Source: Rhodobacteraceae bacterium REDSEA-S34_B6
Lineage (GTDB): Bacteria > Pseudomonadota > Alphaproteobacteria > Rhodobacterales > Rhodobacteraceae
Assembly: GCA_001627925.1 (NCBI GenBank)
Contig: LUQC01000027.1
Span: 1 to 35,715 of the forward strand
Direction of reading: 5' to 3'
DNA: 35,715 nucleotides
A model generated the notes under the pieces. That model did not search any database and was not told the DNA's origin. It saw only the letters and a program-made list of their open reading frames with translations. The translations under genes were made by a program, and so were the position numbers. Of the stretch, positions 7,485-11,056 are shown one piece after another. Each line of letters starts with the position of its first letter. Within the stretch, counting starts at the first letter, position 1.

Positions 7485-8072
7485 TTAAACTGCGGTATCT
7501 TTGTAGTTTATCTCTTTTTTATCCTCTCCAAGCCGACTGCGTCGAATATGGAGTCTATTTAGAGCATTTAAATACGCTTTGGCTGACGCAACTACAGTGT
7601 CAGTATCTGCCGATTGGCCTGTAGAAATATTTCCTTTGTCCTCCATTCGAACAGTCACTGTAGCTTGTGCGTCCGTTCCCTCTGTTACTGCATGAACTTG
7701 ATATAGCTGCAATTTCGCAGTGTGAGGATAAAGCGCTTTAACTGCATTAAAAGTTGCGTCAACTGGTCCATCACCCGTAGCATTAGTCGATACCTCATTA
7801 CCATCAATTGCTAAGATCATTTTGGCACTTTGTGGCCCATGAGTTCCACATATAACCTCTAAAGATTTTAAAACTATGTGATCATTTTCTGTATCTTCTC
7901 CGGCACGCATAAGCGCAATGAGGTCTTCGTCATAAACCTCTTTTTTTCTATCGGCTAATTCTTTGAAACGCACAAACACATCTTTTAATTGATTATCCGC
8001 CAACTGATAACCCAAATCTTCCAATTTAGCTCTCAGAGCTGCCCGCCCTGAGTGTTTTCCTAAGACAAGATT
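7485..8072 (-). CDS. leuA: 2-isopropylmalate synthase, C-terminal part (out of frame with the N-terminal part)
   Basis: The minus-strand frame from 8072 starts NLVLGKHSGRAALRAKLEDLGY and runs through the linker and the LeuA regulatory (allosteric) domain, including GDGPVDATFNAVKAL, LQLYQVHAVTEGTDAQATV and VVASAKAYLNALNRL. It then stops at 7485. The first ATG in the frame is at 8024, but the homology begins earlier at 8072, so this is the rest of leuA rather than a separate gene. In intact LeuA this domain binds leucine for feedback inhibition. The upstream part stops at 8060 in another frame (see that entry). It converges on the RNase E/G gene with 32 bp between the ends. Confidence 0.8.
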   Translation of the reverse strand, partial: NLVLGKHSGRAALRAKLEDLGYQLADNQLKDVFVRFKELADRKKEVYDEDLIALMRAGEDTENDHIVLKSLEVICGTHGPQSAKMILAIDGNEVSTNATGDGPVDATFNAVKALYPHTAKLQLYQVHAVTEGTDAQATVTVRMEDKGNISTGQSADTDTVVASAKAYLNALNRLHIRRSRLGEDKKEINYKDTAV

Positions 8073-9013
8073 GTTTCAGAGTTTTTTAGCATTCCGTCTT
8101 GGTGTATGCCACTTTCATGGGCAAATGCATTTTTGCCAACAATTGCTTTATTAAATTGGACTGGAAAACCTGAAACTGTTGCAACTCTCCTCGAGAGATT
8201 CATTAATTTAGTTGCATCTATTCTTGTGTGGTAAGGCATTATATCGCCTCTCACTTTGAGTGCCATTACAACTTCTTCGAGTGCAGTATTGCCAGCTCGT
8301 TCGCCAAGTCCATTAATTGTGCACTCTATTTGCCTAGCCCCTCCTTCTACCGCTGCAAGAGCATTGGCTGTGGCCATACCTAAATCATTGTGACAGTGAG
8401 TTGCAAACACGACCTCATCTGCCCCTGGGACTCTCTCGATTAGCATACGAATTAAATCAGCGGATTCGACTGGTGCAGTATAGCCTACGGTGTCAGGAAT
8501 GTTTATGGTTGCAGCGCCGGCCTTTATTGCTATTTCTACCACGCGCATCAAGTAATCATGTTCTGTTCGAGTTGCATCCATGGGAGACCATTGAACATTG
8601 TCGCATAAGTTTCGAGCATGTGTAACTGTATCGTGAATTAGCTCAGCCATCTGGTCTTTATCAAGATTTGGAATGGCGCGGTGTAATGGCGACGTTCCAA
8701 TAAACGTGTGTATCCGAGGTGCACTAGAATTTTTCACAGCTTCCCAACACCGGTCAATATCTTTGTAATTAGCACGGGCTAAACCGCATATCGTAGAATT
8801 TTTTGAGCGTCGAGCGATTTCACTGACCGCTTTAAAGTCGCCTTCTGAGGCAATCGGGAACCCAGCCTCTATGATATCCACACCCATTTCATCCAATAGC
8901 TCAGCAATTTCGAGTTTTTCGTCATGGGTCATAGTTGCTCCTGGTGACTGTTCGCCATCACGGAGAGTGGTGTCAAAAATTACTACCCTGTTACTATGGT
9001 TATTATTTTTCAT
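8060..9013 (-). CDS. leuA: 2-isopropylmalate synthase, N-terminal catalytic part (frameshifted)
   Basis: The 317-residue frame contains the LeuA TIM barrel: IFDTTLRDGEQSPGATM (about 12-28), GVDIIEAGFP, THCHNDLGMATANALAA and GAERxxN-like GLGERAGNTALEEV, then FAHESGIHQDGML. LeuA condenses acetyl-CoA with 2-oxoisovalerate in the first committed step of leucine synthesis. After MLKNSET the frame ends ILS-stop, while the family continues for about 15 residues to NLVLGKHSGR. That block resumes in another frame at 8072, so about 43 bases are missing. The ATG at 9013 fits the usual family start. Its own ribosome binding site is weak (AGAGATT), but the start overlaps the stop of an upstream mini-ORF by ATGA. 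Confidence 0.85.
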   Translation of the reverse strand: MKNNNHSNRVVIFDTTLRDGEQSPGATMTHDEKLEIAELLDEMGVDIIEAGFPIASEGDFKAVSEIARRSKNSTICGLARANYKDIDRCWEAVKNSSAPRIHTFIGTSPLHRAIPNLDKDQMAELIHDTVTHARNLCDNVQWSPMDATRTEHDYLMRVVEIAIKAGAATINIPDTVGYTAPVESADLIRMLIERVPGADEVVFATHCHNDLGMATANALAAVEGGARQIECTINGLGERAGNTALEEVVMALKVRGDIMPYHTRIDATKLMNLSRRVATVSGFPVQFNKAIVGKNAFAHESGIHQDGMLKNSETILS

Positions 9014-9060
9014 TTGGAATCTCTATGTTTGGTATTTAAAATTAAGTTCGATGCGGTCAT
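9010..9060 (-). CDS. Mini-ORF translationally coupled to leuA
   Basis: A 16-codon frame, MTASNLILNTKHRDSK, starts at ATG 9060 only 3-5 bases after a strong Shine-Dalgarno sequence (GAGGAGA). It ends in a TGA that overlaps the leuA ATG as ATGA. leuA itself has a poor ribosome binding site, so ribosomes loading here and re-initiating at leuA would be a simple way to translate leuA. The peptide has no recognisable function and its sequence may not matter. I infer a coupling ORF. It could be chance, but the start, ribosome binding site and exact overlap together make chance less likely. Confidence 0.45.
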   Translation of the reverse strand: MTASNLILNTKHRDSK

Positions 9061-9065
9061 TGTCT

Positions 9066-9102
9066 CCTCTGAGCGGACGCACCTTTCTGGCACGCTCAGA
9101 GG
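9066..9102 (-). promoter_or_regulatory. leuA leader hairpin covering a Shine-Dalgarno sequence
   Basis: On the leuA strand, CCTCTGAGCG (9102-9093) pairs perfectly with CGCTCAGAGG (9075-9066), a 10-bp stem with a 17-base loop. The 3' arm ends in AGAGG, which is part of the GAGGAGA Shine-Dalgarno sequence before the mini-ORF at 9060. The hairpin would therefore hide that site. No U-run follows the stem, so it does not look like a Rho-independent terminator. A role in translational control of leuA is inferred from this geometry. Confidence 0.55.
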
Positions 9103-9138
9103 CTGCCTAGTATCAGATTTTGACGTTGATCTATTACC

Positions 9139-9201
9139 TTACAAATTTTGGACATTGAACTCATTTACACCAAGACGTTTCTTGAGGAGGAGTTTATACA
9201 T
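9139..9201 (-). CDS. Putative leucine-rich leader peptide of leuA (LeuL-like)
   Basis: A 20-codon frame upstream of leuA begins MYKLLLKKRLG and ends VQNL. Codons 4-6 are three consecutive CTC leucine codons, with further Leu at 10 and 20. Leader peptides with runs of the regulated amino acid precede leu, ilv, his and trp operons in many proteobacteria, where ribosome stalling on scarce charged tRNA changes the downstream RNA fold. Here the fold is the SD-covering hairpin at 9066-9102. The CTCCTC run is also complementary to GAGGAG of that Shine-Dalgarno sequence. No clear ribosome binding site precedes this ATG, which lowers confidence. Confidence 0.5.
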   Translation of the reverse strand: MYKLLLKKRLGVNEFNVQNL

Positions 9202-9304
9202 GCATTGGTTTAAAAGAAAACAATAAAATAATTTTTGATCGTAAAGTGTGTGCAGTAGACACATAGCGCATCAAGTTATATTTTATATATTGAGTGAGAT
9301 TTTA

Positions 9305-9532
9305 ATGAGGCTAATAGTTTTGAACGAGCAAATGGAAGAAAGAATAGAAAAAATTGAAGCAGTGATATCTAATTTGGTGCGCAATAGCGAAGATTTGTCC
9401 GATATTGTTGCGGCTCAAGATAAAGAAATATCCAGAATTAAGGATAACCTACAGTGGCTTCTGGAGAGAGATTTTGAACGTCAAAATGCTGAAAATACGG
9501 TTACAGATGAAAAACTTCCACCACATTGGTAG
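9305..9532 (+). CDS. slyX: SlyX family protein
   Basis: A 75-residue, highly charged protein that is almost entirely coiled coil (MEERIEKIEAVISNLV... to about 58) and ends DEKLPPHW, which matches the conserved PPPHY-like tail of SlyX. The function of SlyX is not established; it is a small cytosolic protein. The start is a choice between ATG 9305 and ATG 9332. The second gives the more usual SlyX N-terminus (MEERI), and neither has a strong ribosome binding site. It is divergent from the leuA leader, and the space between them holds only that leader and presumed promoters. The MORN-repeat gene follows after 78 bp. Confidence 0.75.
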   Translation: MRLIVLNEQMEERIEKIEAVISNLVRNSEDLSDIVAAQDKEISRIKDNLQWLLERDFERQNAENTVTDEKLPPHW

Positions 9533-9610: not shown

Positions 9611-11056
9611 ATGAAATTTTTTGTTAAGTTATTTCTATCAGCATTTTTGGTATTTTCAGTTCCCTTTAGTGTTGGTGCTCAAGATGATGTTGTCGTTACA
9701 AAGCAATATGACGATGGCGGTATGTATGAGGGTACCTTTAAAAACGGTCTTCAGCATGGAATAGGAACATATCGTTTGCCGAATGGATATGAGTATAGCG
9801 GCGAATGGGTTGATGGCGAGATTCTAGGAGTTGGTGTGGCAAAATTCCCAAATGGCTCTGTGTATGAAGGGAATTTTATAAAAGGTAAACCAGAGGGCTC
9901 CGGCAAAATAATTTTTGCAGACGGGGGAACTTACGAAGGAACTTGGTTAGATGGAAAAATAACTGGTCAGGGTATAGCTGTTTACGCAAACGGATCTCGG
10001 TTCGAGGGTGGATTTTTGGAAGCAATGCATCACGGGCAAGGTGTCATGACTAACTCAGATGGCTATGTATATGACGGTGATTGGGTAAATGGCGTCAAGG
10101 AAGGTTCAGCGAAAATTACCTACCCCGATGGTTCAGTGTATAGCGGAAGTGTCATTCGTGGAGCTCGAGAAGGTAAAGGGACCCTTGAAATGCCAGAAGG
10201 TTTGGTTTTTGAGGGCTTTTGGAAAAACGGTGAGATTAACGGATTAGGGAAATTAACTCAGCCAAATGGCGATATCTACAAAGGTGAACTTTCTAATGGA
10301 AAAAGAAACGGTAACGGGGTTGTAGAGTATGCAAACGGCGACATATATGATGGAGAATTTAAAGAAGATCAAAGAGCAGGTCAGGGCACTTTCCTAGGTT
10401 CTGATGGCTATAAGTATGTAGGGGAGTGGGCCGAGGGGCAAATTCAAGGTGAGGGTGAAGTTACTTATCCTGATGGTTCATTCTACGCAGGTAATTTTGT
10501 AAATGGATTAGCAAGTGGTACTGGTAAAATTCAATATCCAGATGGCTCTGTGTACGAGGGAGAGTGGAAGGCTGGGGTTATCGAGGGTATAGGCCGCGCT
10601 CAGTATTCAAATGGGGTCGTCTATGAGGGTGGATTTAAAAATGCCCGTAATCATGGTTTTGGAATAATGGATTATGGAAATGGATACATTTACGAAGGTG
10701 ATTGGAAAGATGGTAACCGCCATGGCAAGGGGGTGTCAAAATTTGCTGATGGAATGGTCTATGAAGGTGATTATTTGAACGGCAAACGCCATGGTATAGG
10801 TAAAATCACTCTTGCAGATGGCTTTAGATATGAGGGTGAATGGTTGGCTGGTGAAATAACTGGTAAGGGCATCGCCACTTATTCAAATGGCGATGTTTAT
10901 GAAGGAACTTTCGTTAATGGGCGCCGCCAAGGCCAAGGCACAATCAAATTTGCAAACGGAAGGTCGGCTAAAGGTAATTGGCAAGATGGCGCACTTATTG
11001 ATTCTGAGACTTCAGTAACCGATACGGATATTGAGGCATCTACCGGCAATGAATGA
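9611..11056 (+). CDS. Exported MORN-repeat protein
   Basis: A 481-residue protein with a clear signal peptide (MKFFVKLFLSAFLVFS, cleavage probably after VGAQ, about residue 24). About 18 complete MORN repeats plus one degenerate copy follow, with a period of about 23 residues. Each has the pattern (V/I/T)Y-x-G-x-(W/F)-x-x-G-x-x-x-G-x-G. The array fills nearly the whole mature protein, and a short acidic tail (ETSVTDTDIEASTGNE) follows. MORN repeats form elongated beta-hairpin stacks that bind lipids or proteins. No enzymatic domain is seen, so a periplasmic or envelope scaffold role is the most one can say. The ORF ends 13 bp from the convergent photolyase gene. Confidence 0.85.
   Translation: MKFFVKLFLSAFLVFSVPFSVGAQDDVVVTKQYDDGGMYEGTFKNGLQHGIGTYRLPNGYEYSGEWVDGEILGVGVAKFPNGSVYEGNFIKGKPEGSGKIIFADGGTYEGTWLDGKITGQGIAVYANGSRFEGGFLEAMHHGQGVMTNSDGYVYDGDWVNGVKEGSAKITYPDGSVYSGSVIRGAREGKGTLEMPEGLVFEGFWKNGEINGLGKLTQPNGDIYKGELSNGKRNGNGVVEYANGDIYDGEFKEDQRAGQGTFLGSDGYKYVGEWAEGQIQGEGEVTYPDGSFYAGNFVNGLASGTGKIQYPDGSVYEGEWKAGVIEGIGRAQYSNGVVYEGGFKNARNHGFGIMDYGNGYIYEGDWKDGNRHGKGVSKFADGMVYEGDYLNGKRHGIGKITLADGFRYEGEWLAGEITGKGIATYSNGDVYEGTFVNGRRQGQGTIKFANGRSAKGNWQDGALIDSETSVTDTDIEASTGNE

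What the first reader, a model, noticed from the sequence alone, without database searches (positions are those of the whole stretch)
9010..9201. leuA leader: Leu-codon peptide, SD-hiding hairpin and a coupled mini-ORF
Upstream of leuA on the minus strand lie, in order: a 20-codon peptide with three consecutive CTC Leu codons; a perfect 10-bp hairpin whose 3' arm includes part of a strong GAGGAGA ribosome binding site; and a 16-codon ORF that starts just after this site and overlaps the leuA ATG by ATGA. There is no U-run. This reads as a translational switch rather than the classic terminator-type attenuator. The CTCCTC Leu codons are also complementary to GAGGAG, so a ribosome stalled there might free the site directly.
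Basis: partly seen in the sequence, partly recalled or inferred. Interest (0 to 1): 0.8.

Follow-up and report, generated by a model that had tools for sequence, protein, structure and literature searches.

The report
Alphaproteobacterial leuA leader, LEU-element type
In front of the leucine-synthesis gene leuA lies a worn copy of a leader, conserved in many alphaproteobacteria, in which leucine codons of a tiny peptide can pair with the region where the next gene's translation starts; it closely resembles a leader known from Actinobacteria, although the peptide and coupled mini-gene first proposed here are not the conserved parts.

Summary
The CTC-CTC-CTC ORF starts in a conserved TATAA box; its three CTC codons occur in 1 of 7 aligned sequences (the window's own). 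The 16-codon mini-ORF is cut short in 4 of 7. The conserved leader peptide uses another frame, MSKICKVIDQRQNLILGSL*, its stop codon lying inside the hairpin. A model of the element matches 286 of 295 genomes of the family; hits elsewhere in the class, where read, nearly all lie before leuA (some before a cupin gene preceding it). The codons just 5' of the hairpin (Leu at -6 and -4 in 173 and 174 of 174 sequences) pair with the region before the next start codon, with covariation (z -13.2 in the family, -8.9 in other alphaproteobacteria); the family also has a pseudoknot (z -9.1). No terminator was found. This is the architecture of the actinobacterial LEU element, and the family's model ranks leuA leaders of that type as its ten best hits in 604 kb. 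Best reading: translational attenuation by leucine codons that themselves mask the initiation region. In the window's subclade the masking stem is undetectable, so this copy is probably relaxed.

The parts
9096..9155 (-). Conserved leader ORF, MSKICKVIDQRQNLILGSL* (an in-frame ATG at 9164 would add MSS); Leu at codons -6 (CTG), -4 (CTA), -1 (CTC); stop TGA 9098-9096
   Evidence: same frame, same stop, Leu at -6 and -4 across the family
9066..9102 (-). Hairpin P1 (CCTCTGAGCG / CGCTCAGAGG) holding the leader stop codon in its 5' arm; inner alternative stem P2 GTGCC / GGTGC
   Evidence: R1 match G000:C32:9038-9122 at E 2.4e-11
9050..9083 (-). Pseudoknot P3: loop GGTGCG (9083-9078) with CGCATC (9055-9050)
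   Evidence: covaries in the family; 6 bp in the window
9102..9119 (-). Leader codons just 5' of P1 (AAT CTG ATA CTA GGC AGC); in other genomes the 5' strand of base stem P0; no significant partner in the window
   Evidence: family and class; window -3.2 kcal/mol, 0.708 of shuffles as good
9016..9027 (-). CATAGAGATTCC, presumed ribosome-binding region of leuA
   Evidence: mean unpaired probability 0.71
8060..9013 (-). leuA, interrupted: frame ends after 317 aa; 43 nt at 8072 are missing compared with L003
9193..9198 (-).
   Evidence: the sigma-70 pattern scan did not list it
9139..9201 (-).
9010..9060 (-).

Best explanation
The region is a derived copy of a leuA leader conserved across Alphaproteobacteria. 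In the family as a whole: a short, probably leaderless mRNA start encodes a peptide ending typically GLLLLSRL*; its stop codon sits in hairpin P1; the leucine codons directly before P1 pair with the region before the next gene's start codon (base stem P0), and in this family P1's loop pairs downstream (P3), which would hold both strands together. Inferred mechanism: with enough leucyl-tRNA the ribosome passes the leucine codons, terminates inside P1 and leaves, P0 forms and the next gene is poorly initiated; under leucine shortage the ribosome stalls on the leucine codons, physically holds the 5' strand of P0, and the initiation region stays open. Shown by comparison: the peptide, P1, P0, P3, the place before leuA. 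Inferred: leaderless start, stalling, direction of control, initiation as the controlled step. In the window's subclade (L001, L003-L008) P0 is not detectable and in the window the leucine run has shrunk to CTG-ATA-CTA, so this copy probably regulates weakly or not through P0.
For: R1 matches 286 of 295 family genomes. Leu at codon -6 in 93 of 94 family and 80 of 80 other leaders, at -4 in 94 of 94 and 80 of 80, with varied third bases, above all at -6. Cross-pairing tests: P0 in the family z -13.2 (94 sequences; controls -1.4, -1.8, -1.7), -11.8 after thinning to 83; P0 in other leaders z -8.9 (78 sequences, control -1.7), -7.5 after thinning to 64; P3 in the family -9.1 and -8.0. P1 has changes on both sides at 7 of 8 outer pairs in 52 alphaproteobacterial and actinobacterial leaders (alignment fitted to the model). 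29 of 30 class-wide R1 hits lie before leuA, and 60 of 63 further R2 hits read. Named examples before leuA: Phaeobacter inhibens (E 1.5e-17), Paracoccus denitrificans (3e-5), Methylobacterium bullatum (1.6e-6). In cupin-leuA operons the leader sits before the cupin and can pair with its initiation region. No Rfam family matched in 29 loci and the window.
Against: No experiment. The permutations do not remove relatedness. In the window itself P0 is absent by the test used, and simulated ribosome positions do not change the accessibility of the leuA site (nested folds only). In one search the leader codons also covaried with the downstream stretch outside the last 25 nt (z -6.0), but that stretch overlapped the last 35 nt; without overlap it was z -0.8 in 26 sequences. 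PMC1262725 (passages) reports that in Streptomyces coelicolor leader-codon mutations did not behave as classical attenuation predicts. In other alphaproteobacteria codon -5 is often Arg CGA (45 of 80), so the peptide is not always leucine-rich, and in 3 of 80 (L335, L340, L342) the stop position reads TGG. In three of five cupin loci where both were computed the leader pairs about as well with the leuA site.
Confidence: 0.72

Rival explanations
1. Regulatory-protein or ligand site: the TGAGCGTGCC...GGYGCG core of the family is recognised by a protein or small molecule and the peptide is secondary (a protein was the proposal of PMC1262725 for Actinobacteria).
For: 29 of 30 leuA loci found by LeuA similarity have TGAGCGTGCC directly before leuA. 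The invariance in the 97-row alignment adds little, because every row was chosen for that string. P1 and P3 persist in the window's subclade where P0 does not.
Against: Outside the family the core is mostly not kept, while P0 and the two Leu codons are; G248 and G017 inside the family and Paracoccus denitrificans differ in the core.
Confidence: 0.15
2. Classical transcription attenuator: P1 or an overlapping hairpin terminates transcription and stalling prevents it.
For: Leucine-codon leader before a leucine gene with competing structures.
Against: No terminator-like site in the window (relatives were not scanned); the covarying partner of the leader codons is the region before the start codon. 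Rho-dependent termination is not excluded.
Confidence: 0.07
3. One reading: the CTC ORF senses leucine and P1 hides the GAGGAGA site of a mini-ORF coupled to leuA by ATGA.
For: All parts are present in the window; an ATG or GTG follows the purine-rich end of P1 in 7 of 7 aligned sequences; simulated ribosome positions raise the accessibility of GAGGAGA from 0.40 to 0.41, 0.66 and 0.57.
Against: Three CTC codons in 1 of 7, mini-ORF truncated in 4 of 7; the CTC ORF's ATG lies in a conserved TATAA box.
Confidence: 0.03
4. In the window the leader is a decaying relic, with no regulation; leuA itself is interrupted in this assembly. (Not exclusive of the family-wide mechanism.)
For: P0 not detectable and leucine run eroded, leuA frame broken by a 43-nt absence.
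Against: Peptide frame, P1 and the P3 strands stay in 7 of 7 aligned sequences, and leuA is open over 523-526 codons in L003-L008.
Confidence: 0.3

Closest known systems
LEU element of Actinobacteria (PMC1262725; passages read)
   Same: Before leuA; leader peptide with leucine run; base stem between the leucine codons and the leuA Shine-Dalgarno region; pseudoknot; possible alternative hairpin. Peptide core GLLLLS(R/C) and letters CTYCTTAGCYGCC occur in both groups; R1 ranks leuA leaders of this type first.
   Different: Alphaproteobacterial leuA; stop codon inside P1, whereas in the actinobacterial loci read by eye it follows the 5' arm; pseudoknot detected only in the window's family; other leaders mostly have L-R-L or L-L-L; P0 missing in the window's subclade.
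LeuL1 leader peptide of Streptomyces lividans, MRFGLLLLSCRGEGL* (PMC8079986; passages)
   Same: GLLLLSC core, leuA, no typical terminator; reported as transcribed leaderless, as the TATA box 6-9 nt before the leader start in 58 of 94 sequences suggests here.
   Different: Actinobacterium; no structure given in the passages seen.
Classical leu attenuator (E. coli leuL; recalled)
   Same: Leucine-codon leader peptide, biosynthetic target.
   Different: Terminator with U-run, not found here; different structure.
Translational attenuation of erm genes (recalled; papers seen only in the listing)
   Same: Ribosome stall in a leader frees a masked ribosome-binding site.
   Different: Signal is a drug, not tRNA charging; the sensing codons are not themselves the masking strand (recalled).
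trpL / rnTrpL of Sinorhizobium meliloti (PMC10117765; passages)
   Same: Leaderless leader-peptide mRNA in an alphaproteobacterium.
   Different: Tryptophan attenuator yielding a small RNA.

Membership tests
[quoted passage not shown]
   Family: Leu at -6 in 93 of 94, -4 in 94 of 94, -5 and -7 in 80 of 94 each. Window: Leu at -6, -4, -1; Ile at -5, Asn at -7.
[quoted passage not shown]
   z -13.2 (94 sequences), -11.8 thinned (83). The paired stretch ends at most 12 nt before the leuA ATG in 44 of 94, 13-30 nt in 45, farther in 5, so in about half it is upstream of the usual SD place. Other leaders, last 35 nt before leuA: z -8.9 (78), -7.5 thinned (64).
LEU element | The same base stem in the window's own copy | tested here: not met
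   -3.2 kcal/mol, 0.708 of shuffles as good. So the window copy is called a derived homologue of the family's leader, not a full LEU element.
LEU element | Pseudoknot | tested here: met
   Family: z -9.1, -8.0 thinned; window 6 bp. Not found in the other alphaproteobacterial leaders (loop x downstream z -1.0 and -1.2).
[quoted passage not shown]
   GUGCC/GGYGC can pair in 97 of 97 but varies only G-C to G-U, and the rows were chosen for part of it.
LEU element | Common descent with the actinobacterial element | tested here: inconclusive
   R1's ten best matches in 80 loci are leuA leaders (nine in records titled as actinobacteria, one, L189, titled Bacillus, unverified); best E 2.2e-5, the rest 0.014 to 0.54; 18 of all 26 matches at E up to 5 lie at leuA; many actinobacterial loci gave none. 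Convergence is not excluded.
Classical transcription attenuator | Intrinsic terminator with U-run | tested here: not met
   0 terminator-like sites in 8990-9330.
Any Rfam family | Score above the gathering threshold | tested here: not met
   0 matches in the window and 29 loci.
Translational attenuator (any) | Leucine-dependent change of translation initiation | not testable with these tools
   needs reporters or ribosome profiling

The most novel reading that the evidence does not exclude
A single ancient kind of leucine switch, in which the sensing codons are themselves the strand that masks the ribosome-binding region, is shared by Actinobacteria and Alphaproteobacteria in front of different leuA types, moves with the first gene of the operon (leuA or cupin-leuA), and has evolved with and without a pseudoknot; in the window's lineage it is caught while losing its masking stem.
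Probability: 0.4. Interest if true: 0.75.

Novelty: new variant of a known kind. Interest (0 to 1): 0.58.

Why it matters
The actinobacterial LEU element was described in 2005 without a settled mechanism: codon mutations in one species did not fit attenuation and a binding protein was suggested (PMC1262725, passages). A class-wide set of alphaproteobacterial relatives, including forms without a detectable pseudoknot and a subclade without a detectable base stem, lets the mechanism be tested by comparison and in tractable bacteria such as Phaeobacter inhibens, and suggests a regulator for leuA in a class where the searches made here found none in print.

Tried and rejected
Rejected: the CTC ORF and the ATGA mini-ORF as functional parts; a terminator; single-sequence folding as evidence (z -0.56); a sequestering fold of the leuA site in the window. 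A pseudoknot in the other alphaproteobacterial leaders was sought and not found. A viral-contig scan for actinobacterial leuA found nothing.

Papers. Searches listed no paper that I recognised as describing an alphaproteobacterial leuA leader; some searches listed only 20 of 68, 15 of 817 and 15 of 331 papers. Passages were seen of PMC1262725, PMC4833913, PMC4117421, PMC2965389, PMC10117765, PMC1273637, PMC8079986 and PMC4046766; no paper was read whole. Vitreschak 2004 (10.1016/j.femsle.2004.04.005) is seen only as a citation, so a mention there is not excluded.

Naming. No call names the window's organism. Its LeuA is 84-87% identical to LeuA of Phaeobacter and Paracoccus (Rhodobacterales, Alphaproteobacteria), and relatives of the leader are in these and in Methylobacterium; 'alphaproteobacterial' for the unnamed G genomes rests on this and on the tool's 'same class' label.

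Rows dropped or weak. 11 same-genus rows left out; 86 loci tried, 6 not parsed (L333, L334, L344, L356, L357, L358), 2 of the 80 parsed too short downstream; near relatives were not thinned there, but were; 63 places read, 59 with a LeuA motif, L274 added after one search showed an offset in my script; left are L334 (a leuA-like gene lies next to it), L357, and L358 (a second hit in G973, probably false). L303 repeats L153, which trained R2. Not all 91 hits were read. One search does not tell how many of its 398 genomes lie outside the class. In one search the control counts single codons, the test counts sequences. E-values of R1 and R2 are rough (short calibration).

Full report
Observation. 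On the minus strand the window holds, 5' to 3', the ORF MYKLLLKKRLGVNEFNVQNL* from 9201, the perfect 10-bp inverted repeat 9102-9093/9075-9066, GAGGAGA at 9069-9063, the ORF MTASNLILNTKHRDSK* from 9060, and leuA from 9013. There is no terminator-like site in 8990-9330, and no Rfam family matches the window.

Close relatives. leuA was sought by protein similarity in 61 genomes (54 had a match of some kind, and the 30 best leuA loci were brought in). Three CTC codons occur in 1 of 7; the mini-ORF is cut short in 4 of 7. What is conserved instead is another frame, MSKICKVIDQRQNLILGSL* in the window, whose TGA is in the 5' arm of the hairpin.

The family. In 29 of these 30 leuA loci the string TGAGCGTGCC and a peptide ending at that TGA lie directly before leuA; in the last one (G017) the element lies before a cupin gene that precedes leuA. 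The pattern CYTCTGAGCGTGCCN{2,14}GGYGCG occurs in 213 of 295 genomes of the family. Eighty of these places were fetched; over all 118 loci then examined (some of them duplicates) 112 had the string and a LeuA motif within 420 nt, five of the six others have a cupin gene between leader and leuA, and the sixth is G017. A covariance model R1 built from 97 aligned cores matches 286 of 295 family genomes. The window's LeuA is 84-87% identical to that of Phaeobacter inhibens and Paracoccus species, and R1 finds the leader before leuA in both; the gene table of the Phaeobacter record lists no feature there, but such tables are incomplete.

Structure. P1 is the hairpin. Its loop contains GGYGCG, which can pair back inside the hairpin (P2, GUGCC/GGYGC) or with CGCRCC downstream (P3, a pseudoknot). 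The codons just before P1 can pair with the region before the next start codon (P0). I tested P0 and P3 by computing the pairing energy of each sequence's own two strands and of strands exchanged between genomes (94 sequences after dropping 11 same-genus rows). P0: own -13.38, exchanged -10.03 kcal/mol, z -13.2. P3: own -16.1, exchanged -14.17, z -9.1. Three control pairings gave z -1.4, -1.8 and -1.7. After thinning near relatives to 83 sequences P0 is z -11.8 and P3 z -8.0. Relatedness is not fully removed by this test, but the controls carry it too. The paired stretch ends at most 12 nt before the leuA ATG in 44 of 94, 13-30 nt before it in 45 and farther in 5.

The peptide. Over 94 family leaders Leu stands at codon -6 in 93, at -4 in 94, at -5 and -7 in 80 each; at -6 the codons are CTT 39, CTG 35, CTC 9, CTA 8 and others, so the amino acid is kept while the third base varies. 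A TATANN box ends 6-9 nt before an in-frame start in 58 of 94 (any distance up to 20 nt: 62 of 94; out-of-frame ATG/GTG codons: 11 of 145), which suggests a leaderless mRNA; this is inference.

Beyond the family. R1 matched 30 of 385 genomes of the class, 25 of them outside the family; 29 of the 30 places lie before leuA, two of these with a gene in between. A second model R2 from 52 leaders matched 91 of 385 genomes. Of 63 further places read, 60 have a LeuA motif downstream. A phylum-wide sample gave 63 of 398 genomes, every listed match being of the same class or family. In these other leaders the stop codon is again inside P1 in 77 of 80 (TGA 65, TAG 8, TAA 4), the other three reading TGG there. 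Over the 52 leaders of A2, P1 shows changes on both sides at 7 of 8 outer pairs (alignment fitted to the model). Leu is at -6 and -4 in 80 of 80, and Arg CGA at -5 in 45. P0 covaries with the last 35 nt before leuA (78 sequences, z -8.9, control -1.7; thinned to 64, z -7.5, control -0.9). The first run also gave z -6.0 with the rest of the downstream stretch, which overlapped that window; without overlap it is z -0.8 in 26 sequences. P3 was not found there (z -1.0 and -1.2).

A natural displacement. In cupin-leuA operons (L066, L068, L088, L104, L105, L124, L128, and G017) the leader lies before the cupin. In six of the seven computed the leader codons can pair with the 35 nt before the cupin at -10.5 to -15.4 kcal/mol (in L104 my script chose a wrong start codon). 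The contrast with leuA of the same operon is clear in L124 and L128 (-5.4, -4.5) and not in L066, L088 and L105 (-12.5, -11.5, -12.2).

Actinobacteria. PMC1262725 (passages) describes the LEU element before actinobacterial leuA: leader peptide with a leucine run, pseudoknot, and a base stem between the leucine run and the Shine-Dalgarno box. Loci of named species show such leaders by eye. R1, built from the window's family only, searched over 80 loci (604,023 bases), has as its ten best matches leuA leaders on the right strand, nine in records titled as actinobacteria and one titled Bacillus (unverified); the best is in Micromonospora at E 2.2e-5, the others are weak (0.014 to 0.54). Of all 26 matches at E up to 5, 18 lie at leuA; many actinobacterial loci gave none. 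Streptomyces lividans has the leaderless peptide MRFGLLLLSCRGEGL* there (PMC8079986, passages).

The window's copy. In L001 and L003-L007 the P0 energy is -2.6 to -5.0 kcal/mol, no better than shuffled leader codons (0.26 to 0.73 of shuffles as good), in L008 -6.0 (0.24), while the sister subclade L009-L015 has -10.7 to -11.1 (0.002 to 0.038). Predicted accessibility of the leuA site is 0.71 and is not changed by simulated ribosome positions (nested folds only). So the mechanism is proposed for the family and only in weakened form, if at all, for the window.

Verdict. The element works like, and in its family-wide form meets the main tested features of, the LEU element; the window's copy fails one defining feature and is filed as a derived homologue. 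The searches showed no alphaproteobacterial leuA leader in print, with the reservations that long lists were seen only in part and that one likely paper (Vitreschak 2004) was not seen.

Noticed in passing
window 8072 (-): leuA is interrupted: 43 nt present in L003 are absent, and the frame ends after 317 aa; a further ORF (7485-8024) follows in another frame. Assembly error or true loss not decided.
   Followed up: partly
L066, L068, L088, L104, L105, L124, L128, L359: A small gene that looks like a cupin (by eye, no family search) stands between the leader and leuA in part of the family, apparently as first gene of the operon.
   Followed up: partly
L129-L153, L301-L357: Other alphaproteobacterial leaders often end L-R-L-x-x-P-stop with the codons CTT/CTG CGA CTT; why the Arg CGA codon is kept (45 of 80) is unexplained.
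   Followed up: no
L157, L164, L174: Rhizobium and Hoeflea leuA of the other type also have a leucine-run ORF (...SLLLLGLT...) upstream, followed by a different sequence.
   Followed up: no
window 9611-11056 (+): A 481-aa ORF made of repeated YEGxW/F motifs that look like MORN repeats (motif recalled, no family search made).
   Followed up: no
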